From contig PUNP01000852.1 of NCBI GenBank assembly GCA_003551785.1, positions 1 through 9,382 on the forward strand: DNA of 9,382 nt, given 5' to 3'. The stretch's first letter is position 1. Each line of letters opens with the position of its first letter. Origin of the DNA: Candidatus Brocadiaceae bacterium. GTDB taxonomy: Bacteria > Planctomycetota > Brocadiia > SM23-32. The notes below the pieces were generated by a model that saw only the letters and a program-made list of their open reading frames with translations, ran no database searches and had not been told where the DNA came from. The position numbers were made by a program, and so were the translations under genes. This document shows positions 1 to 9,382 of the stretch, one piece after another.

Positions 1-381
1 CACTTCCATTGGCATAAAATGGAAGATATTATCAACAGAGGGGGCGGTAACCTGTTAATCCAATTGTATAATGCCGACGAAAGTGAGAAACTTGCCCAGT
101 CAAATGTTACCGTTTGTAAAGATGGAAGAGTTTATCATGATAAAGCCGGATGCATAATCCGGCTTGAACCGGGGGAAAGTATTACTCTCACCCAAGGGTT
201 GTATCATCAATTCTGGGCGGAAAGAGGACGGGGAAAAGTGCTGTTGGGTGAAGTATCTATGGTTAACGACGATAGCCTGGATAATCGGTTTCTGAATGAT
301 GTAGGACGCTTCCCTCAAATCGAAGAAGATGTGCCACCTTTTCGACTGTTAGCGGGACAATACCCTTTGAGCGAGGACTGA
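1..381 (+). CDS. lyxA: D-lyxose/D-mannose isomerase family protein, C-terminal part (5' end outside window)
   Basis: The frame is open from base 1 and reads HFHWHKMEDIINRGGG, the cupin motif of the D-lyxose ketol-isomerase family (LyxA, B. subtilis YdaE). The HxH pair and the following Glu are expected metal ligands. A third region, GLYHQFWAE (residues 66-74 of the visible part), supplies the last His. The tail GEVSMVNDD...DNRF and GRFPQIEEDVPP is also typical. Members are around 230 residues, so the 126 visible residues are about the C-terminal half; the start is off the left edge. Known members interconvert D-lyxose and D-xylulose and often D-mannose and D-fructose with a divalent metal, in the cytoplasm. 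The stop lies 4 bases before the kinase gene, so this is an upstream member of the sugar operon. The family call is firm; the true substrate is not known. Confidence 0.88.
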   Translation, partial: HFHWHKMEDIINRGGGNLLIQLYNADESEKLAQSNVTVCKDGRVYHDKAGCIIRLEPGESITLTQGLYHQFWAERGRGKVLLGEVSMVNDDSLDNRFLNDVGRFPQIEEDVPPFRLLAGQYPLSED

Positions 382-385
382 CAAA

Positions 386-1582
386 ATGACCAATAGTCAA
401 AATGACAAAAATAAAGTCGACGTACTGATACTTAATACGGCGGTTTTGGACCTTAAAAGTGAAAGGTTTGAGTTTGTTGATCAACTTGTTGGTGCCGGCG
501 GTCTGGCAAAATGTCCGGTTGATCAAATGCCGGATTATTCTCAGACTGAACTGAAGGAAATTATCGATGAAGGCTGTGCTTCGGCCGGTGGGCCGGGTAA
601 TACCGCACCGATAATTGCAAAGGCCGGACTGAATGTCGCTGTCGGTGGATACCTCGGCAAAGGCGATTTTGACGGATTGGATGTCCAGGGGGTTACATTT
701 AAAGGCATTCTCGAAAAAAATGGCGTTGACGTTTCGGCTTTCAGAACTCACCCAACTCTGCCAACCGGAACAACCTTCATCAATGACAGACCCGGGGATG
801 AAAGGGGGGGGATAGCGTATTTTCCGAATGCGAACGATGATTTCGATTTTGATGTTTTCAAAAGTGAGGTCATGCGGTTAAAGCCGAATATTGTATATTA
901 TATGTATTCCGGGCTTTCTGAAAAAGGCGATGCCCGTGGTGGGAAGAACCTGGCTGATTTTATGAAATGGTGCCGGAATGAAAATGGCTGCATAACTATT
1001 ACTGACAGCCATACGCTCGTTTCAGACCCGCAGGATGTCATTGAAAAGGGATATCCCGTTGATGCATACGAACTTCTGCGCCCTCTGTTATCCGAACTCG
1101 ACATATTTTTCACATCCGCCGATGAGGCTAAAATGATTCACAACACTTTGGATAAGCCCCGCGACTGGGGGGCTTTTGATGAAGTCTCGAATTATGAGCA
1201 CTTCCTTCACTTCCTCCTGGATAATTATGCTGATGATCAACAACAGCATGCAAGCCTTTTCGGCGTTACTTGCTCAAAAGGTGCTATGGGAGTCTATGTG
1301 TCTGAAAGTGGAGAAGTGAAAGGGCCGCAAATGGTAGAATCCAAGTTTTTAACAGACCAGGTTAATGACCTTGTAGGTGCCGGTGATTCTTTTCGTGCCG
1401 GGCTGATCTCATATATCGCCCGACATTCTAATGAATTTAAACAAGGCAAGCTTAATTTCAAAGATGCTATTCAAATGGGTAATCTTACCGCTGTATCGTA
1501 TATTACCGCCCCTTGGGAAAACAGGTATGCCAATATCGACCTTTATGAGAAAATGCTCAAAAAAGTGAAAAATGATAAATGA
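386..1582 (+). CDS. PfkB-family carbohydrate kinase
   Basis: A 398-residue cytoplasmic kinase of the ribokinase/PfkB superfamily. The C-terminal signature NDLVGAGDSFRAG (residues 327-339) carries the anion hole and the expected catalytic base Asp334. GGPGNTAP (68-75) is the usual sugar-binding Gly/Asn stretch, and TCSKGAMGVYV (295-305) is the nucleotide-side strand. It is longer than ribokinase (about 310 residues), mainly because of inserts between residues 20-65 and 250-290. The start at 386 has GAGG (373-376) 9 bases upstream and lies 4 bases after the isomerase stop. It would phosphorylate a sugar, probably the ketose made by the upstream isomerase, but PfkB members also act on nucleosides, 2-keto-3-deoxy acids and sugar phosphates, so the substrate is open. 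A run of eight G residues (804-811) sits in frame in the coding region. Confidence 0.88.
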   Translation: MTNSQNDKNKVDVLILNTAVLDLKSERFEFVDQLVGAGGLAKCPVDQMPDYSQTELKEIIDEGCASAGGPGNTAPIIAKAGLNVAVGGYLGKGDFDGLDVQGVTFKGILEKNGVDVSAFRTHPTLPTGTTFINDRPGDERGGIAYFPNANDDFDFDVFKSEVMRLKPNIVYYMYSGLSEKGDARGGKNLADFMKWCRNENGCITITDSHTLVSDPQDVIEKGYPVDAYELLRPLLSELDIFFTSADEAKMIHNTLDKPRDWGAFDEVSNYEHFLHFLLDNYADDQQQHASLFGVTCSKGAMGVYVSESGEVKGPQMVESKFLTDQVNDLVGAGDSFRAGLISYIARHSNEFKQGKLNFKDAIQMGNLTAVSYITAPWENRYANIDLYEKMLKKVKNDK

Positions 1583-1608
1583 GCTATTACTAACTAAATT
1601 AATTTTCA

Positions 1609-1627
1609 AATTTATTCCGGATAAATT
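1609..1627 (+). other. AT-rich hairpin upstream of the DUF4432 gene
   Basis: The bases AATTTAT (1609-1615) and ATAAATT (1621-1627) are perfect complements around a 5-base loop TCCGG. The hairpin lies in the only sizeable gap of the operon (1583-1641), just before the ribosome binding site GGAGG (1631-1635). It has no T-run, so it is not a normal terminator. It could be an operator half-site pair or an mRNA processing or stability element. The stem is weak and chance is possible in such AT-rich sequence. Confidence 0.35.
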
Positions 1628-1641
1628 AACGGAGGATTATT

Positions 1642-2673
1642 ATGGACAAAGGATTGGAAAATAAGATTTCACACCATTCTCAGATAGGAGGGATTGAAAC
1701 TTCTGTTTTGGATAATGGTCCCGGCAAAGGTGTGCGCATCGCCTGGTTTAATACCGGTTCACCGCTGCGATTCAAAGTGGTTGTTGATAGAGCAATGGAC
1801 ATATGTGATGCGTTTTTTTCGCATCACAGTCTTGCCTGGATCAGCCATCAGGGAGTTACAGCCCCCGATCCCGCTGCAAATAAAGGCATGGATTGGCTTG
1901 GAACCTTTTCCGGAGGACTTTTGACCACCTGCGGACTCTCGCATATAGGACAACCGGAAGAAGACCAATCGGGAGCCAGGGGCCTTCACGGGAAAATAAG
2001 CACCATGCCCGCTGAAATTACTCATATCAAACAACCTGATCCCCAATCCGGACGGAACCAAATGGCTATTACCGGTGTTATTCGCGAGTCTACGGTGTTC
2101 GGCCCTATGCTGGAATTGCATCGTACCATCAGCTCGGAGTTGGGGAAAGCTGATATCAAAATCCAGGATAAAGTTGTCAATAAAGGGAATGAACCTGTAC
2201 CGCATATGCTGCTTTATCATTGTAATTTCGGATACCCACTGGTCGACTCAGGGACAAAACTGGAGTGGAAAGGCGAATTGAATCCGGCTGATCAAGATGG
2301 ATTTTTTAGTAAAGAAAATGATTATTGGACATGCCCTGATCCGATACCGCAACATAATGGCCCGGGGGAAGCTTGTGCTTTTATATACCCTCAACCGGAT
2401 ACGGACGGTTTATGCCGATGTTCAGTTGTGAATCCCAGGCTTGAAATTAAACTTACTCTGTCTTTCTCACCCAAACAACTCCCTTGCCTGACTAACTGGC
2501 AGCATTGGGGGACTCGTGAATATGTTACCGCCCTTGAACCGGGAACTAACCACCCTATTGGGCAGGGCGGCGCGAGAAAAAATAAAGAACTGTATATGCT
2601 TGAACCGGGGGAAGAAAAGGAATATGACTTATCATTTAGCCTCTCTGACATCAGGAGGCCGTATGATAATTAA
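1642..2673 (+). CDS. DUF4432 family aldose 1-epimerase-like protein
   Basis: A 343-residue protein of the galactose-mutarotase-like superfamily, DUF4432 branch. Family blocks visible in order are DRAMDI (49-54), SLAWIS (63-68), GVTAP (71-75), FSGGLLTTCGL (89-99), GLHGKIS (114-120) and LYHCNFGYPL (191-200). A late ALEPGTN (298-304) is where mutarotases carry their catalytic Glu. His116 and His193 are candidate sugar-binding or catalytic residues. No signal peptide is seen, so it is cytoplasmic. Relatives are annotated as aldose epimerases; few have tested activity. The ribosome binding site GGAGG lies 6 bases before the start. In this operon it plausibly interconverts anomers of the sugar used by the isomerase and kinases (inference). 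Its 3' end overlaps the next gene by 11 bases. Confidence 0.85.
   Translation: MDKGLENKISHHSQIGGIETSVLDNGPGKGVRIAWFNTGSPLRFKVVVDRAMDICDAFFSHHSLAWISHQGVTAPDPAANKGMDWLGTFSGGLLTTCGLSHIGQPEEDQSGARGLHGKISTMPAEITHIKQPDPQSGRNQMAITGVIRESTVFGPMLELHRTISSELGKADIKIQDKVVNKGNEPVPHMLLYHCNFGYPLVDSGTKLEWKGELNPADQDGFFSKENDYWTCPDPIPQHNGPGEACAFIYPQPDTDGLCRCSVVNPRLEIKLTLSFSPKQLPCLTNWQHWGTREYVTALEPGTNHPIGQGGARKNKELYMLEPGEEKEYDLSFSLSDIRRPYDN
2653..2658 (+). promoter_or_regulatory. Ribosome binding site deciding the polyol dehydrogenase start
   Basis: AGGAGG, a full Shine-Dalgarno core, lies 4 bases before ATG 2663 and inside the end of the DUF4432 gene. It supports 2663 over in-frame upstream ATGs at 2516 and 2624, which would add residues ahead of the nucleotide-binding fold. 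Confidence 0.7.
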
Positions 2674-3940
2674 ACATGAATTGGCCGGTTTCGGGTTCGG
2701 CCCGATACAGTCCGGCATATTTGCCGCTGAAGCAGCCCAAAGCAGCGATTTCAACCGAATCAGCATAGCAGAAGTAGACGGTGAATTAGTTGATGCTGTT
2801 AGAAAAAACGGGAATACTTATTCCCTGAATATCGCACACCGTGATTGTATTAAGACCGTGAATATAAAAAATGTTGACCTCTTCAATATCACTATCGCGG
2901 CACAACGTGATGAAATGATACACAGGCTCAAAACTGCCACTGAAATAGTGACTTCTCTGCCGTCTGTTAATTTCTTCAATGCCGGTGGTGAAAACAGCCC
3001 CGCTGCTCTTATAGCTCTTGGGCTGCAAAGCAACAATGAAGAGCCAGCTTTAATTTATGCCGCTGAAAATAATAATCAGGCGGCGGAATTGCTCGAGAAA
3101 CAGGTTGCAAAATATCTTGAAAATGCCTCGAATCGGCGTCCCAGCCAATTCCTTAACACGGTTATCGGCAAAATGTCACAAGTGATAGATGATCCCAATC
3201 TGATGAAAAAACTCGCCCTGGCACCAGTAACACCTGATGTTTCGAAAGCTTTCCTGGTGGAAGAATTCAACCGTATTCTCGTCTCAAGTGCAAATATCAA
3301 CGGTTTCACGCCCGGTTTTTCAATGTTCGAAGAAAAAAATGATTTAGCGCCTTTCGAAGAAACTAAACTTTTTGGACATAATGCGGTACATGCTATGCTG
3401 GGTTTTTTTGCTAAAAATCGTGGATTAAAAACTATGACGCAGCTTAGAGAACATCCGGATTTGATGCAGACCGCACGCAGTGCATTGGTTAATGAAACAG
3501 GGCAAGCGCTAATCAAACTATATAAGAATACCGGCGAAAACCTTTTTACTCCGAAGGGCTTTAAAGAATATGCAGATGATCTGCTGGAGCGTATTACCAA
3601 CCCAATGCTCCACGATGCCGTTGACAGAATGGTCAGAGATCCTATCAGAAAACTTGGATATAATGACCGGCTTTTCGGGGCTGTACGATTATGTTTAGAT
3701 TGCGGCATAAAGCCTGTCAACCTCGTCTGGGGGGTAATTGAGGGGCTAAAATATATCCAGCGATCTGGAGTATTTGAAAAATATTCCACTGGGATGGATA
3801 AGAAAATACCCGAGGCGGGGGTGTTTGATCCTCAGTTCACGGGTAAACTCCTCAGTGAAATCTGGCAAAATGAAAAATTTAACGCGCTAAAATTGAATGA
3901 AATTGCCAATCTTGTCAGCGAGGTTTACACAAATGGTTAA
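2663..3940 (+). CDS. Mannitol-1-phosphate 5-dehydrogenase-like polyol dehydrogenase
   Basis: From ATG 2663 this is a 425-residue protein of the long-chain polyol dehydrogenase family (MtlD-like; E. coli MtlD is about 382 residues). The N-terminal Rossmann fold starts at once with GFGFGPIQSG (9-18), and Asp39 ends strand 2, which favours NAD over NADP. YAAENN (132-137) matches the IACEN region of MtlD, and VEEFNRILV (199-207) opens the C-terminal domain. The catalytic pattern K-x4-N-x2-H is present as KLFGHNAVH (Lys235, Asn240, His243). RKLGYNDRL (329-337) matches the conserved RKL.x.DRL segment. It should oxidise a polyol, or polyol phosphate, to a ketose or reduce the reverse way. Whether the substrate is phosphorylated is not visible. 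The start overlaps the preceding gene by 11 bases; longer in-frame starts at 2516 and 2624 are rejected. Confidence 0.83.
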   Translation: MIIKHELAGFGFGPIQSGIFAAEAAQSSDFNRISIAEVDGELVDAVRKNGNTYSLNIAHRDCIKTVNIKNVDLFNITIAAQRDEMIHRLKTATEIVTSLPSVNFFNAGGENSPAALIALGLQSNNEEPALIYAAENNNQAAELLEKQVAKYLENASNRRPSQFLNTVIGKMSQVIDDPNLMKKLALAPVTPDVSKAFLVEEFNRILVSSANINGFTPGFSMFEEKNDLAPFEETKLFGHNAVHAMLGFFAKNRGLKTMTQLREHPDLMQTARSALVNETGQALIKLYKNTGENLFTPKGFKEYADDLLERITNPMLHDAVDRMVRDPIRKLGYNDRLFGAVRLCLDCGIKPVNLVWGVIEGLKYIQRSGVFEKYSTGMDKKIPEAGVFDPQFTGKLLSEIWQNEKFNALKLNEIANLVSEVYTNG

Positions 3941-4766
3941 TTTCCCAAGGACAAAAGTCGGAGGCATATCGCTCTCCAGACTTATAATTGGTACTAACTG
4001 GTTTCTGGGGTATTCTCATACCAGTGCAGCAAAAGATAAATTTATCAAAAATTTTCAGACTAAAGAGAACATCACCGAAATCCTTGTGGAATTTCTCAAC
4101 GTCGGAGTCGATACGATCATGGGCATGCCGGTACCACTCCTTCGTGATGCTATTGAGGACGCTGAAAACCGTGTCGGCAGGGGGATCAAGCTTATACTTA
4201 CTCCGCATTTTAATATCCTTCCCGGGGGTGAAAGGGAATTAGAGCCCCAGCATGTGTTTGATAAATGCCGAGAGCTTGGGGCGACATTCTGCATGCCGCA
4301 TCAGTGCATTACCGATCGGCTTGTTGACAGATTGCATGGGAATATTCGGGATATGGATAAATACTCCAAAATGATACGCGATAGAGATATGATCCCCGGC
4401 CTCTCAACACACATGCCGGAAACTATTAGTGTTGCAGACCACTCAAAAGCTGATGTGGAAACTTATATTCAAATTTATAACGCAGCAGGATTTATGATGT
4501 CACTCGAGGCCGACTGGGTTATGCGGATTATTTATCAAGCTGAAAAACCGGTAATGACTATCAAACCCCTGGCTGCGGGGAGACTGCTGCCGCCCGTGGG
4601 CCTGGCTTTTGTTTGGAATACTATTCGGGACTGCGATTTGGTTACGATAGGCACGACTACTCCGGATGAAGCTAAAGAAATTATTGAACTATCATTGGCC
4701 TTTTTGGAAAAAAGAAACCCTGAGAATGAATTACAATTTACCAGGAGTAAGCAATTTTATGTGTGA
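3933..4766 (+). CDS. Divergent aldo/keto reductase-fold protein, catalytic tetrad apparently lost
   Basis: A 277-residue protein, about the size of a small aldo/keto reductase (AKR). The start VGGISLSRLIIGTNWF (9-24) resembles the AKR opening, and the end IKPLAAGRL (210-218), VTIGTTTPDEAKEIIE (237-252) resembles the AKR cofactor-phosphate region. By my by-eye alignment, GVDTIMGMPVP (58-68) occupies the place of the usual G.NFFDTA..Y, so catalytic Asp and Tyr become Met63 and Pro68. LILTPHFN (87-94) replaces the TK strand, so the Lys becomes Pro91. His123 in MPHQ may be the retained His. It may therefore be a non-redox TIM-barrel enzyme or use other residues. ATG 3933 overlaps the upstream gene by 8 bases; an in-frame ATG at 3897 lies deeper in the upstream gene and adds residues not seen in AKRs. 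Function unknown. Confidence 0.75.
   Translation: MVNFPRTKVGGISLSRLIIGTNWFLGYSHTSAAKDKFIKNFQTKENITEILVEFLNVGVDTIMGMPVPLLRDAIEDAENRVGRGIKLILTPHFNILPGGERELEPQHVFDKCRELGATFCMPHQCITDRLVDRLHGNIRDMDKYSKMIRDRDMIPGLSTHMPETISVADHSKADVETYIQIYNAAGFMMSLEADWVMRIIYQAEKPVMTIKPLAAGRLLPPVGLAFVWNTIRDCDLVTIGTTTPDEAKEIIELSLAFLEKRNPENELQFTRSKQFYV
4743..4747 (+). promoter_or_regulatory. Ribosome binding site deciding the ROK kinase start
   Basis: AGGAG lies 11 bases before ATG 4759, inside the end of the preceding gene. The gap is slightly long but fits better than the in-frame ATGs at 4666 and nearby, which would place about 30 extra residues before the ATP-binding motif. Confidence 0.55.
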
Positions 4767-5646
4767 AAAAATTGGTATTGATTTAGGGGGGACCAAAATA
4801 GAAGGGGTGGCATTGGATGCACAGGGTAACGAAATCGACAGAATCAGAATACCTACCGGGCAAGAATATGGATATGAACATGTTCTGAATAATATTCAAA
4901 AGGTTTATCTCAGCATGCGTTCAAAACTCAGCACTGGAGAGCATACTTTTGGTATCGGCACTCCTGGCGCTACCTCACCTAAAACCGGGAAATTACGCAA
5001 TTCAAACACACTTTGCCTGAATGGTAAAAGGTTGCACGACGACTTGGAAGATTTGCTTGATCATCGGGTGGAAATTCAGAATGATGCGAATTGTTTTGCT
5101 ATGGCAGAAGCGCTTTTCGGTGCGGGGAAACACCACAAGATGGTTTTTGGCGTGATTTTGGGCACAGGCTGTGGCGGAGGGGTAGTGATCGATAAAAAAG
5201 TACATACAGGCAGTATGGCCATCGCCGGTGAATGGGGGCATATGGTGCTCAACCCCGAAGGACCTGAATGTTATTGTGGGAATCGAGGCTGTGTTGAGAC
5301 TTACCTCAGTGGCGGCGGCCTCGAAAAACTCTATTCCGAACGCTATGGAACTGATGTGCCTTTTCACCAAATTGCTGATAATTATTACAAAGGTAATAAG
5401 CATTGCATTGAATTCATTTCTGAGTTTTTAGCTCATTTTGGCCAGGCTATGGCTAACCTTATTAATATACTTGACCCCGATGTTGTCGTTATTGGCGGCG
5501 GCCTTTCGAATTTCGATGCCCTCTACTCCCAAGGAACAGAAGCTATCGCTAATGTCATCTTTTGCGACTACTTTGATACCCCAGTGGTAAAAAATAAGCT
5601 CGGTGATTCAGCCGGAGTAATAGGCGCTGCGCTTATCGGTAAATAG
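4759..5646 (+). CDS. ROK-family sugar kinase (glucokinase/fructokinase/N-acetylhexosamine kinase type)
   Basis: A 295-residue cytoplasmic kinase of the ROK (repressor, ORF, kinase) family without the N-terminal DNA-binding domain. IGIDLGGTKIEG (5-16) is the phosphate-1 loop. QNDANCFA (107-114) contains the expected catalytic base Asp109. ILGTGCGGGVV (133-143) is phosphate-2, and GEWGHMVLNP (157-166) is the sugar-binding stretch. The zinc site is complete: His161 and CYCGNRGC (171-178), followed by VETYLSG. IGGGLSNFD (245-253) is the adenosine-side motif. It uses ATP to phosphorylate a hexose such as fructose, mannose, glucose or an N-acetylhexosamine; motifs do not settle which. Its start overlaps the AKR-like gene by 8 bases, and it is the last gene of the operon. 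It is the second, unrelated sugar kinase in the same transcription unit. Confidence 0.9.
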   Translation: MCEKIGIDLGGTKIEGVALDAQGNEIDRIRIPTGQEYGYEHVLNNIQKVYLSMRSKLSTGEHTFGIGTPGATSPKTGKLRNSNTLCLNGKRLHDDLEDLLDHRVEIQNDANCFAMAEALFGAGKHHKMVFGVILGTGCGGGVVIDKKVHTGSMAIAGEWGHMVLNPEGPECYCGNRGCVETYLSGGGLEKLYSERYGTDVPFHQIADNYYKGNKHCIEFISEFLAHFGQAMANLINILDPDVVVIGGGLSNFDALYSQGTEAIANVIFCDYFDTPVVKNKLGDSAGVIGAALIGK

Positions 5647-5672
5647 CGCATTGTTAAAATACTGTGCTGGAC

Positions 5673-5690
5673 AAGTGGAAAGGACCACTT
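5673..5690 (+). terminator. Hairpin after the sugar operon, possible terminator without T-run
   Basis: AAGTGG (5673-5678) and CCACTT (5685-5690) form a perfect 6-base stem around the loop AAAGGA, 26 bases after the ROK kinase stop. No T-run follows, so an intrinsic terminator is doubtful. It may only mark the end of the transcript or be chance. Confidence 0.3.
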
Positions 5691-5741
5691 CTAATGCTTC
5701 GTTGCATAACTAAGGATAATCTTTGGTCATTCCGTTTTTTT

Positions 5742-5773
5742 ACCGCAGAGAGCGCAGAGGACACAGAGAACGG
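5742..5773. repeat. Dispersed CCGCAGAG...CACAGAG-type repeat, single copy
   Basis: The block is built from near-repeats of CGCAGAG / ACAGAG: ACCGCAGAG, AGCGCAGAG, GACACAGAG, then AACGG. On the other strand it reads as CTCTGTG, CTCTGCG, CTCTCTGCGG units. I recognise this wording from intergenic repeats scattered through many unrelated bacterial genomes, often mis-translated as ESAEDTEN-like peptides. The outer CCGTT (5732-5736) and AACGG (5769-5773) are complementary, so the copy could fold into a loose stem. Only one copy lies in the window, so its repetition here is inferred, not seen. Confidence 0.6.
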
Positions 5774-5824
5774 CTTATTTACTGAGATCAGACCTGACCT
5801 GCATTACATTTACGCCGGATTTGA

Positions 5825-5854
5825 TTTTACGCATGTTTTCACTTACTCTATAAA
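5825..5854 (+). promoter_or_regulatory. Weak candidate sigma-70-type promoter for the aldehyde dehydrogenase
   Basis: TTTTAC (5825-5830) and TATAAA (5849-5854) are separated by 18 bases and end 50 bases before the aldehyde dehydrogenase start. The -35 match is poor. The gap of 258 bases after the sugar operon makes a separate promoter here likely, but this exact placement is a guess in AT-rich sequence. Confidence 0.25.
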
Positions 5855-5904
5855 TGAAGATCAAGATGTAAAATATAGTTTACTTAAATTAGAGGTACAT
5901 ATCT

Positions 5905-7323
5905 ATGCAAAAATTATTTATCAACGGACATTGGTGTGAAGGCACAGATCAGAAATCTTTTCAATCGTTTAATCCTGCCACCGGCGAGGCTATCGATTCC
6001 ATTGCCGCCGGCTCAATAGATGATGTTGAGAAAGCTGTTCAGGCAGCCAGGGAAGCATATCACGATTGGACGGTTTCCAATGTTACGGATCGGGCTGAAA
6101 TGCTACGACAGTACCTGTACCGCATGCGTGAGGAAAAGGAAAATCTCGCCGAGTTAGTTACTCGGGAAGTCGGTAAAACCGTCCCTGAATCACTGGCGGA
6201 GATTGAAGACGCGCTCAACCTTGTCGACTACCTCGTAGGGGAAGGTAAGCGCTATTTTGGCGAGGTTGCGCCCTCAACTCAAAAAAATCGGTTCGCCTAT
6301 ACCCAGCGCTGCGCTTATGGAGTCGCAGCATTGCTTACTCCATGGAATTTCCCTGTCAGTATTTTAATCTGGAAACTCGCTCCCGCTTTACTCTGCGGAA
6401 ACACGACCGTTGTCAAACCGTCCAGTGATTCCCCTTTAACGGCCGGCGCATTGGTTCAATATGGCGAAGATATCTTCCCAGAGGGGGTAGTGAACCTTGT
6501 AACCGGAAGAGGGGGGGCAATCGGAGATCGTATCGTCTCACATGAGTGGGTAGATGTTATTAGTTTCACCGGATCAACCGAGATCGGCAAGAAAATTCGC
6601 AGTTGTGCCGGCATGAAAGAGGTCGGACTCGAGTTGGGAGGTAAAAATCCCGCTGTTATTATGCCGTCGGCAAATATTGACGGAGCAGTGAGCGATACAG
6701 TTAAAGGTGCGTTTGGTGTTGCGGGGCAACGTTGTACGGCTACCAGCAGAGTAATAGTGCATCAGGACATTTACGATGAATTCAAAGTGAAACTCATCGC
6801 ACAAACTGAACAGTTAAAGCTCGGGAACGGACTTGATTCGGAAACCGATATGGGGCCTCTGATCAAAAAATCGCAAGTCGAAAGCGTGGATGGCTATGTT
6901 AATAACGCAGTAAATGACGGTGCAGAACTGCTTTGCGGCGGCAAAAGGATGCCGGAAGTCGGTGCGTGTTTCTATGCACCGACCGTGCTTGATAAAGTCA
7001 CAAAAGATATGGAAGTAGCACAAGAAGAAGTCTTTGGCCCCGTTTTGTGCCTCATGAAATGCTCGTCTCTTGATGATGCAATAGATATTGCTAATGATGT
7101 CAGATACGGGCTTTCTGCTGCAATCTATACTGCGCACCTCAAGGAGGCATTCAGAGCAACAAACGAACTCGCCTCGGGTATAGTCGTTGTGAACAACCCA
7201 CCCGGAGCCGTTGAGACACATTTGCCGTTTGGCGGCGTGAAAGAAAGCGGTATAGGGCGTGAAGGCGGAATTGAAGGGATTGATGAATTCAGTAGAACAA
7301 AGACCGTATATATTGATTATTAA
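5905..7323 (+). CDS. NAD(P)-dependent aldehyde dehydrogenase (semialdehyde dehydrogenase-like)
   Basis: A complete 472-residue class-3-sized aldehyde dehydrogenase. TPWNFP (145-150) gives the oxyanion Asn148, and VVKPSSDSP (169-177) carries Lys171. FTGSTEIG (221-228) is the cofactor loop, LELGGKNP (242-249) carries the general base Glu243, and AGQRCTATSR (273-282) carries the catalytic Cys277. EEVFGPV (374-380) contributes Glu375, and PFGGVKESGIGREGG (441-455) is the usual C-terminal block. All key residues are present. GEGKRYFGE (112-120) and AGQRCTATSR resemble the 2-oxoglutarate-semialdehyde dehydrogenase branch (YcbD-like), but succinate-semialdehyde or other aldehydes are possible. AGAGG (5891-5895) lies 9 bases before the start. 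It follows the sugar operon after a 258-base spacer and probably formed an operon with the dehydrogenase gene downstream before a small element inserted right after its stop. Confidence 0.93.
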   Translation: MQKLFINGHWCEGTDQKSFQSFNPATGEAIDSIAAGSIDDVEKAVQAAREAYHDWTVSNVTDRAEMLRQYLYRMREEKENLAELVTREVGKTVPESLAEIEDALNLVDYLVGEGKRYFGEVAPSTQKNRFAYTQRCAYGVAALLTPWNFPVSILIWKLAPALLCGNTTVVKPSSDSPLTAGALVQYGEDIFPEGVVNLVTGRGGAIGDRIVSHEWVDVISFTGSTEIGKKIRSCAGMKEVGLELGGKNPAVIMPSANIDGAVSDTVKGAFGVAGQRCTATSRVIVHQDIYDEFKVKLIAQTEQLKLGNGLDSETDMGPLIKKSQVESVDGYVNNAVNDGAELLCGGKRMPEVGACFYAPTVLDKVTKDMEVAQEEVFGPVLCLMKCSSLDDAIDIANDVRYGLSAAIYTAHLKEAFRATNELASGIVVVNNPPGAVETHLPFGGVKESGIGREGGIEGIDEFSRTKTVYIDY

Positions 7324-7330
7324 TATAATA
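7323..7330. repeat. Left target-site duplication of the putative MITE
   Basis: ATATAATA directly abuts the left inverted repeat and matches ATATAATG at 7520-7527 in 7 of 8 positions. Its first base is the last base of the aldehyde dehydrogenase stop codon. Confidence 0.65.
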
Positions 7331-7356
7331 GGCGCTCCGTCATCTTTGCGGATGTT
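7331..7356 (+). repeat. Left terminal inverted repeat of the putative MITE
   Basis: Pairs with 7494-7519 in 22 of 26 positions. Mismatches fall at positions 3, 5, 9 and 13 from the outer end, and the inner 13 bases (7344-7356) are perfect. Confidence 0.68.
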
Positions 7357-7413
7357 GAGATTGCGCAAGCGGGTCGTAATCACTTATAACAAAAGGAGAT
7401 ATTAGTTGATGAG

Positions 7414-7542
7414 ATGATGTTGCGGGGTTGTCTTTTTTTTGCCAGCAACTCTGTTAGCGATGATCTTAATGCCAAAACCTTTTTGCTCATTAAAACATCC
7501 GCAAAGTTGAAGGACCCCCATATAATGATTGGCAAGAGATAA
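7414..7542 (+). CDS. Possible 42-residue small protein or leader ORF inside the MITE
   Basis: An open frame ATGATGTTGCGG... of 42 codons runs from within the putative MITE across its right end. It stops with TAA immediately before the ATG of the dehydrogenase gene (TAAATG). AAAAGGAGAT (7391-7400) precedes it, but 13 bases away, which is long. The peptide (MMLRGCLFFASNSV...) shows no motif I know. If translated it could couple ribosomes into the dehydrogenase start and so partly repair the split operon. It is more likely an accidental open frame. Confidence 0.2.
   Translation: MMLRGCLFFASNSVSDDLNAKTFLLIKTSAKLKDPHIMIGKR
7494..7519 (-). repeat. Right terminal inverted repeat of the putative MITE
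   Basis: Reverse complement begins GGGGGTCCTTCAA and joins the shared core CTTTGCGGATGTT. It is the inverted partner of 7331-7356, with four mismatches. Confidence 0.68.
7520..7527. repeat. Right target-site duplication of the putative MITE
   Basis: ATATAATG abuts the right inverted repeat and matches the left copy at 7323-7330 except for the last base. Confidence 0.65.
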
Positions 7543-8271
7543 ATGATACAGGAAAAATACATAGGAAAAACGGCTATTGTTACAGGTGCTAGCCGCGGAA
7601 TCGGACGTAATATCGCGCTTACGCTTGCTGAAGAAGGCATGAAAGTCATTGCGTCAGCACGTAATGCAAAAGATATAAAAGACTTATCAGATTATATATG
7701 CGATAATGGTGGTTTGGCTGAGGCCGTGGAGGTTGATTTAGCTGATGAATCAAGTGTTATATCACTTTTTCAAAAGGTTAATCAAAAATATGGCTCACCG
7801 GGTGTTTTAATTAACAATGCCGGAGTGGGCGCGTATGGGCCACTTGCTGAGTATACTACAAAAGATTTGGATCATCTTATTTCAGTAAACCTGAGAGGAA
7901 CATATCTTTGTGCGCGTGAAGCCATGAAGTGCATGATAAAAGAGCGTTCCGGCTATATCATCAACATTGCCAGTGTTGTGGGATTCAAGGGTTACCCGAA
8001 CCAATCCGCCTACACGGCAACTAAACATGGGGTTGTCGGGCTGACTAAATCGCTGGCGAAAGAGGCACAGGAATATGATATAAGAGTCAGCGTTATTAAC
8101 CCGGGCGGTGTTGATACGAAGATGGTAAGAAAATCACGACCTGATTTAAATCCATCTGAACTTCTTTCCCCGGATGATGTCTCACAAGCCGTAATCTATC
8201 TGCTGTCGCTGTCGGAGAAGGCAGCTGTAGATGAGTTATACCTGCGCAGATATAGCAGCCAACCTTTTTAA
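7543..8271 (+). CDS. Short-chain dehydrogenase/reductase (SDR), classical type
   Basis: A 242-residue classical SDR of usual length. TGASRGIG (14-21) is the cofactor loop, Ser38-Ala39-Arg40 after strand 2 favours NADP, and Asp65-Leu66 caps the adenine pocket. NNAG (91-94) is present, and the catalytic set is complete: Asn116, Ser144 (NIASVVG), Tyr157 and Lys161 (YTATK). PGGVDT (187-192) follows as expected. The end DELYLRR (230-236) is the conserved C-terminal turn. It would reduce a carbonyl or oxidise an alcohol; the family covers sugar, 3-oxoacyl and many other substrates, so the name should stay general. GGCAAGAGAT before ATG 7543 is a weak ribosome site, and the preceding TAA abuts the ATG. 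Without the putative MITE the gene would lie 22 bases after the aldehyde dehydrogenase, which suggests joint work on one alcohol-aldehyde-acid route. Confidence 0.9.
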   Translation: MIQEKYIGKTAIVTGASRGIGRNIALTLAEEGMKVIASARNAKDIKDLSDYICDNGGLAEAVEVDLADESSVISLFQKVNQKYGSPGVLINNAGVGAYGPLAEYTTKDLDHLISVNLRGTYLCAREAMKCMIKERSGYIINIASVVGFKGYPNQSAYTATKHGVVGLTKSLAKEAQEYDIRVSVINPGGVDTKMVRKSRPDLNPSELLSPDDVSQAVIYLLSLSEKAAVDELYLRRYSSQPF

Positions 8272-8503: not shown

Positions 8504-9382
8504 TTATTCGAACAAAGGAGTTTGCCAGGCTTTTTTGAGTTCTGAAATCGGAGTCGAAATTAACGTCTCTGAATTATTCCCAAGCACGCTTAACATACCC
8601 GTTTCATTTGTCGCCCCCACCTGGCTGCAGACTACCCCGGCAAACATCGATTCAAATGTTTCCTTATTGGCTGGTGAAATCTCAAGCAAGAAACGGGTAT
8701 TGGACTCGCTAAAAAGCAATATATCATTCGGGATACTATTGAAATCTTTCCCTACAGGCACATTACCTAATTTTATATCTGCGCCAAAACCACCGGCGAA
8801 AGCCATTTCGGCCGCCGCTGCGCCAAGCCCTCCTTCCGACAAGTCGTGGCATGCGTTCACTAAACCATAATTGATCACCTTCTGAACGGTTTCCATAACC
8901 TTTAAAGCGCTCCGGCGTCGCACTTTTGGCACTGAACGCCCTAAATACCCGTTTAATTCATAATAATGAGAACCACCAAGTTCCGGATACGTTGCCCCCA
9001 CCAGATAAATTAAAGTGTTGGGTTCTTTAAAGTCCATTGTTTGAGTCAGCCTGATATCATCGATAGCTGACATTGCACTTATCAGAAGCGTCGGCGGGAT
9101 ACTGACCGTTTCTTTTCCGGTGTTAAACTCATTATTCAGGCTGTCTTTACCGCTGATGAACGGGACTTTAAAAGCTTTTCCGTAGTCATAACACGCCAAA
9201 GCGGCCCTTACCAATGTCCCTAACTGTTCCGGTTTTCTGGTATTGCCCCAGCAAAAATTATCAAGTATAGCCGTTCGTGAGATATCTCCCCCCACAGCAA
9301 CAATGTTTCTCAGTGCTTCATCGATAGCACTGGCAGCGGCATGGTAGGCATCGATATCCGCATATTTTGGGTTCATACCACA
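8504..9382 (-). CDS. purL: Phosphoribosylformylglycinamidine synthase subunit PurL, C-terminal part (5' end outside window)
   Basis: The frame is open to the right edge, reading CGMNPKYADIDAYHAAASAIDEALRN at the start of the visible part, then VAVGGD, AILDNFCWGN, FISGKDSLNNEF and CHDLSEGGLGAAAAEMAF. These are PurL (FGAM synthase) motifs of the second AIR-synthase-like half; CHDLSEGGLG is the conserved HD.SEGGL loop. PurL makes FGAM from FGAR, ATP and glutamine-derived ammonia, the fourth step of purine synthesis. The protein ends soon after this domain with no glutaminase domain, so it is the stand-alone type that needs separate PurQ (and usually PurS). About 292 residues are visible; at least a similar amount should lie to the right. 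It converges on the SDR gene and is unrelated to the sugar operon by function. Confidence 0.93.
   Translation of the reverse strand, partial: CGMNPKYADIDAYHAAASAIDEALRNIVAVGGDISRTAILDNFCWGNTRKPEQLGTLVRAALACYDYGKAFKVPFISGKDSLNNEFNTGKETVSIPPTLLISAMSAIDDIRLTQTMDFKEPNTLIYLVGATYPELGGSHYYELNGYLGRSVPKVRRRSALKVMETVQKVINYGLVNACHDLSEGGLGAAAAEMAFAGGFGADIKLGNVPVGKDFNSIPNDILLFSESNTRFLLEISPANKETFESMFAGVVCSQVGATNETGMLSVLGNNSETLISTPISELKKAWQTPLFE

What the first reader, a model, noticed from the sequence alone, without database searches (positions are those of the whole stretch)
7323..7527. A 189-base MITE-like element with target duplication splits a dehydrogenase operon
Seen: 26-base terminal inverted repeats (22/26 matching, 13-base perfect core) at 7331-7356 and 7494-7519, flanked without gap by ATATAATA and ATATAATG. 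Inverted repeats meeting a direct repeat at both ends is the mark of transposition. Inferred: removing the element and one duplication leaves the SDR start 22 bases after the aldehyde dehydrogenase stop, a normal operon spacing, so the insertion separates two co-transcribed genes. The four differences between arms and one in the duplication suggest an old insertion. I cannot name the parent insertion sequence.
Basis: partly seen in the sequence, partly recalled or inferred. Interest (0 to 1): 0.72.

Follow-up and report, generated by a model that had tools for sequence, protein, structure and literature searches.

The report
Small transposon relic between two genes
A 189-base DNA piece between two metabolic genes of an uncultured bacterium is most likely a short hitch-hiking transposon of a known general kind, with related copies in genomes of its relatives.

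Summary
Arms 7331-7356 and 7494-7519 match at 22 of 26 positions; 0 of 1000 shuffles of the spacer and 0 of 60 of the window reach that. ATATAATA/ATATAATG abut both arms. No whole genome is held for the window. Its aldehyde dehydrogenase is closest, in a genome scan, to two 'Candidatus Brocadiaceae' MAGs, G001 and G002. G002 holds relatives of the element: 9 BLAST matches at E<0.01, and 14 matches to the end pattern against 0 for the reversed pattern. One is a full 262-bp element. Another sits between DUF47 and a phosphate transporter gene: the gap is 196 nt in G002 but 7, 40 and 42 nt in three relatives. I call it an old MITE-type, non-autonomous transposon of a lineage-restricted family. Not shown: an empty site at the window's own locus (both relatives lack the SDR beside the dehydrogenase), or a parent insertion sequence. 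ISL3 was a lead, but the similarity of ends is not significant. Most related places show only one end, which I cannot fully explain. New member of a known kind; modest interest.

The parts
7331..7519 (+). MITE-type element, 189 bp, 44% GC, no transposase gene
   Evidence: Inverted arms, shuffle control, relatives in G001, G002, G009, six-frame translation
7331..7356 (+). left terminal inverted repeat
   Evidence: end motif recurs in G002
7494..7519 (-). right terminal inverted repeat
   Evidence: right-end relatives L092, L095, L098, L113
7323..7330 (.). left copy of putative 8-bp target duplication, ATATAATA
7520..7527 (.). right copy of putative 8-bp target duplication, ATATAATG (7/8)
7331..7408 (+). 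left end region shared with L091, L092, L093, L094 (about 80 nt)
   Evidence: alignment A2
7445..7519 (+). right end region shared with L092, L095, L098, L113; can fold into a nested hairpin
   Evidence: alignment A3, DNA folds
5905..7323 (+). aldehyde dehydrogenase gene before the element
   Evidence: Pfam PF00171
7543..8271 (+). short-chain dehydrogenase (SDR) gene after the element
   Evidence: Pfam PF00106

Best explanation
7331-7519 is a non-autonomous DNA transposon (MITE type) that inserted at the stop codon of the aldehyde dehydrogenase gene and probably duplicated 8 bp of AT-rich target. It has no transposase; a transposase supplied by an autonomous element with matching ends, now or formerly in the lineage, would have cut at the GG...CTTTGCGGATGTT ends and pasted it in. 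Shown: the ends and their significance, the near-perfect flanking repeat, related copies in sister genomes, and a short spacer in relatives where one sister copy sits. Inferred: movement by a transposase in trans, the age, and any effect on the two genes. The element probably makes a structured spacer in a read-through transcript; no terminator-like site was detected.
For: Ends beyond chance. Exactly abutting 7/8 direct repeat. BLAST of the 189 bp: 26 matches in G002 at E<=10, 9 of them at E<0.01, best 8.9e-15; 4 weak ones in G001. End pattern with up to 3 mismatches: 14 in G002 on 13 contigs, 1 in G001, 0 in the reversed-pattern control. Relative with both ends in L092 888-1149. Sister copy L095 1464-1611 (weak left end, flanks agree at 5/8) between DUF47 and PHO4: gap 196 nt in G002, against 7 nt in G001 (DUF47 83% identical), 40 in G005 (67%), 42 in G008 (64%). 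Stops in all six frames; 0 terminator-like sites.
Against: No autonomous element with these ends was found. The full copy L092 has no target duplication (3/8, read). Of 21 end places examined only 5 (both ends of the window and of L092, and L095) have a partner end in the right orientation above 9 bits. No empty site for the window's own locus: the two nearest relatives found lack the ALDH-SDR pair.
Confidence: 0.86

Rival explanations
1. The inverted arms form a regulatory RNA hairpin or attenuator native to the dehydrogenase operon, not a mobile element.
For: 7323-7527 folds better than shuffles on both strands (z -3.11 and -3.54).
Against: The same ends lie at unrelated loci in G002; no Rfam family reached its gathering score in 7200-7700; the strong fold is expected from the arms; the two nearest relatives of the dehydrogenase found lack the SDR neighbour, and by reading no such ends follow the dehydrogenase there.
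Confidence: 0.04
2. The repeats are a family of dispersed end units (REP-like or single-ended) that spread by some other route; the paired copies in the window and L092 are two units in opposite orientation rather than one transposon.
For: Most places have a single end; the right-end half can fold by itself into a hairpin in the window and L092.
Against: Window and L092 share both a distinct left and a distinct right end in the same arrangement; L094 keeps the left end plus interior but not the outer right end, so truncation occurs; the 8-bp repeat abuts both arms in the window.
Confidence: 0.08
3. The parent is an ISL3-family insertion sequence.
For: Ends starting GGCTCT and an 8-bp AT-rich duplication resemble ISL3 elements of the same class: 4 of the 25 ISL3 loci scripted (L129, L130, L131, L134) have identical 24-nt ends and perfect 8-bp AT-rich duplications.
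Against: Alignment score of the end to nine ISL3 ends is no better than shuffles (2934 of 5000 reach it); the first 8 bases only weakly so (1097 of 20000). In 30 fetched ISL3 loci the end pattern is never met with fewer than 4 of 18 mismatches.
Confidence: 0.25

Closest known systems
Bacterial MITEs as reviewed in PMC2229807 (RUP, Correia/NEMIS, ERIC; passages seen)
   Same: Small, non-coding, terminal inverted repeats, mostly intergenic, target duplications, stem-loop transcripts.
   Different: Ends start GG, not the TA motif described there for most; 8-bp repeat; no sequence relation to those families was tested.
MITEAba12 with proposed parent ISAba12 (PMC6382973; abstract text and passages seen)
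   Same: Short non-coding element with inverted ends and AT-rich target duplications (9 bp there); insertion sequences listed there with similar ends start GG.
   Different: MITEAba12 copies are uniform (111-114 bp) with a proposed resident parent; here copies are diverged, often one-ended, and no parent was found.
ISL3-family insertion sequences of the same class (L129, L130, L131, L134)
   Same: GG-starting inverted ends and 8-bp AT-rich target duplications.
   Different: Their ends read GGGTC.TC...GTGGGT; similarity to the element's ends is not significant, and the element has no transposase.

Membership tests
[quoted passage not shown]
   189 bp; size range from a passage of PMC6382973
[quoted passage not shown]
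   22/26; 0 of 1000 spacer shuffles reach it
[quoted passage not shown]
   each of the six frames of 7331-7519 holds at least one stop; open stretches are 45 codons or less
[quoted passage not shown]
   7/8 in the window; relatives are weaker: L095 5/8, L092 3/8 (read)
[quoted passage not shown]
   window's genome not held; dispersed relatives in G002
[quoted passage not shown]
   short spacer in three relatives for sister copy L095; not available for the window locus
[quoted passage not shown]
   none found near PF01610, PF00872, PF12762 or PF01609 matches fetched from relatives; only four families tried, fragmented MAGs, own genome not held
ISL3-derived element | ends similar to ISL3 ends | tested here: not met
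   2934 of 5000 shuffles score as well
ISL3-derived element | 8-bp AT-rich duplication | tested here: met
   ATATAATA/ATATAATG, 7/8; ISL3 duplications
REP / RAYT palindromes | GTAG or CGTC tag beside a short palindrome | not tested
   tags known from PMC3733652 abstract and passages; no dedicated test made

The most novel reading that the evidence does not exclude
The one-ended copies are genuine products of a transposition mode that inserts or leaves a single end, so this lineage carries a repeat family whose unit is one 23-80 nt end, with two-ended MITEs as the minority form.
Probability: 0.06. Interest if true: 0.5.

Novelty: new member of a known kind. Interest (0 to 1): 0.22.

Why it matters
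It adds one small transposon family that, as far as searched, is restricted to one order of uncultured planctomycetes (3 of 10 genomes of the order; 4 of 75 of the class, the extra one taken as a coding chance match). A sister copy sits right behind a stop codon in a conserved phosphate-transport gene pair, which could be used to ask how such insertions are tolerated inside operons. Otherwise it is ordinary.

Tried and rejected
Searches without a useful result: plasmids (two short hits at E 0.6), phages (none), viral contigs with the right end (0) and with the degenerate end (1; it looks like coding sequence by eye and is taken as chance), Rfam on 7200-7700 (nothing at gathering score), papers holding the 13-base core (0), MITE with anammox (2 papers listed, neither on this group by title). 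Promoter-like sites in 7200-7700: 2 against 1.4 in shuffles, so nothing.

Parent search: ISL3 (PF01610) was sought in 75 genomes of the class. Of its loci I scripted 25, L125-L149, for inverted ends (two were too short) and 30, L109-L111 and L125-L151, for the element's end pattern: best 4 of 18 mismatches, in L109 (inside the transposase domain) and L137. Matches without a fetched locus were not checked singly, though the end pattern at up to 2 mismatches occurs in only 4 of those 75 genomes. IS256 (PF00872), IS1595 (PF12762) and DDE_Tnp_1 (PF01609) were sought in G001, G002, G009: 8 loci, best 4 of 18 mismatches, in L161 within the matched transposase domain, the others 5 or more. IS6, IS66 and other families were not tried. 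I first favoured ISL3 by eye; the shuffle test did not support it.

Hits dropped: G041/L121 (2 mismatches; overlaps long frames, and reads through as a kinase-receiver linker by my eye) and L106 (weak BLAST hit, no end found). Five places, L101, L102, L103, L104 and L108, have 4 to 6 mismatches to the pattern and may partly be chance. Two pattern matches (C75, C121) were not fetched.

Further empty sites: I fetched 120 contigs of G001, 601,149 bases of about 2.2 Mb, and compared them by tblastn with frames from 17 copy loci. L095 matched L163, already known. L097, L100, L101 and L102 also had hits; of these only L102 against L300 was aligned, and it was not alignable upstream. The others were not pursued: L100 hit two different contigs, L101's hit begins at a contig end, L097's is a short distant frame.

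Full report
What is in the sequence. The arms at 7331-7356 and 7494-7519 are real (22/26) and beyond chance (0 of 1000 shuffles of the spacer, 0 of 60 of the window). ATATAATA (7323-7330) and ATATAATG (7520-7527) abut them. The left repeat includes the last base of the aldehyde dehydrogenase stop codon. The SDR starts 219 nt after that stop, or 22 nt if the element and one repeat are left out of the count. The element is 44% GC with stops in all six frames. In 7200-7700 there are 0 terminator-like sites and 2 promoter-like sites, the latter no more than shuffles give (1.4). RNA folds of 7323-7527 are stronger than shuffles on both strands (z -3.11 and -3.54), as inverted arms make them.

Where the window comes from. 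No whole genome is held. The protein search lists the window's proteins on one 9382-base contig. The dehydrogenase has six relatives at 64-74% identity; the next listed are at 50% or less (best 120 listed). A genome scan with these kept 80 of 423 relatives; the best two are MAGs named Candidatus Brocadiaceae, L001 (70%) and L002 (73%), the third 40%. They lie in G001 and G002. In neither is the dehydrogenase followed by an SDR: L001 has a frame that reads, by eye, like a DegT-type aminotransferase, L002 a long frame on the other strand. So the adjacency in the window is not conserved there, and no empty site is available at this locus.

Other copies. BLAST with the 189 bp gave 26 matches in G002 at E<=10 (9 at E<0.01, best 8.9e-15) and 4 weak ones in G001. 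The pattern GGNNNTCCNTCANCTTTGCGGATGTT with up to 3 mismatches matched 14 times in G002, on 13 contigs, and once in G001; the reversed pattern matched 0 times. With up to 2 mismatches it is found in 3 of 10 genomes of the order (G002, G001, G009), 4 of 75 of the class (the additional one, G041, overlaps coding frames and is taken as chance) and 2 of 392 sampled from the phylum (G002 and G041). BLAST on the eight other genomes of the order matched only G009 at E<=1. The family therefore looks restricted to this lineage, as far as searched. In a simple frame count, 8 of the 19 end places outside the window overlap an uncurated open frame of 80 codons or more and 11 do not, so 'intergenic' holds for many but was not proved for all.

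Anatomy of the family. Window, L091, L092, L093 and L094 share about 80 nt of left end. Window, L092, L095, L098 and L113 share about 75 nt of right end. The middle is variable. L092 888-1149 is a two-ended 262-bp relative. L095 1464-1611 is a 148-bp copy with a weak left end. L094 has the left end and interior but not the outer right end. The right-end region alone folds into a nested hairpin in the window and L092 (z -2.80, -4.49), less clearly in L095 (-2.21) and L113 (-2.43), and not in L098 (-1.02).

Empty site of a sister copy. The L095 copy lies between a DUF47 (PhoU_div) gene and a PHO4 phosphate transporter gene. In G002 the gap is 196 nt and the element starts directly after the stop codon. 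In G001, whose DUF47 is 83% identical, the gap is 7 nt; in G005 (67%) it is 40 and in G008 (64%) 42. These are the 3 other genomes of the order with a DUF47 match; the other 17 matching genomes of the class are at 31% identity or less and were not compared. This is the best evidence that members of the family are insertions.

Parent. ISL3 elements of the same class can have ends like GGGTCTTC...GTGGGT and perfect 8-bp AT-rich duplications (4 of 25 loci scripted: L129, L130, L131, L134), which suggested kinship. A shuffle test of end similarity did not support it (2934 of 5000; first 8 bases 1097 of 20000). In 30 ISL3 loci and 8 loci of IS256, IS1595 and DDE_Tnp_1 the end pattern is not met with fewer than 4 of 18 mismatches. 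In G001 and G002 no two pattern matches lie on one contig except the 262-bp copy L092. The genomes are fragmented MAGs and the window's own is not held, so a parent may simply be missing.

What does not fit well. Of the 21 end places examined (2 in the window, 17 in G002, 1 each in G001 and G009), only those of the window, of L092 and, weakly, L095 have a partner end in the right orientation above 9 bits; L096 has one weak match (18 bits) in the wrong orientation 870 nt away. If copies had simply decayed, both ends should decay alike. Truncation (L094) and assembly breaks (L096 lies near a contig end) explain some. I leave the rest open.

Verdict. An old MITE-type element of a lineage-restricted family that I could not name: new member of a known kind. 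Claims about operon splitting and the parent remain inference. The feature list for MITEs comes from passages of PMC2229807, PMC6382973 and PMC3733652. I do not claim that the family is absent from the literature beyond the searches.

Noticed in passing
L096 2093, L097 1790, L099 899, L100 2020, L107 1500 (G002): Single copies of the end motif without a partner end in the fetched flanks and with interiors that look unrelated.
   Followed up: partly
window 1-8271: Sugar-metabolism gene cluster: D-lyxose isomerase, PfkB kinase, DUF4432, mannitol-dehydrogenase-like, a 289-aa frame without Pfam or NCBIfam match (3897-4766), ROK kinase, aldehyde dehydrogenase, SDR.
   Followed up: no
window 8504-9376: Convergent frame similar to the C-terminal part of PurL (E 1.8e-49, 168.6 bits, far below the model cut-off of 648), running open to the contig end.
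   Followed up: no
L109 632-2287 (G001): ISL3-type element with a 459-aa frame bounded by GGGTCTTCATAAAAATCTGTGGGTGA-like ends, read by eye.
   Followed up: partly
L157 1409-2392 (G001): IS1595-type element with 21/22 inverted ends GACTACCGGGTTAACTCATCAT flanked by AT-rich sequence.
   Followed up: no
window 5905-7323: The aldehyde dehydrogenase belongs to a small set of six metagenomic relatives at 64-74% identity, apart from the next listed ones at 50% or less.
   Followed up: partly
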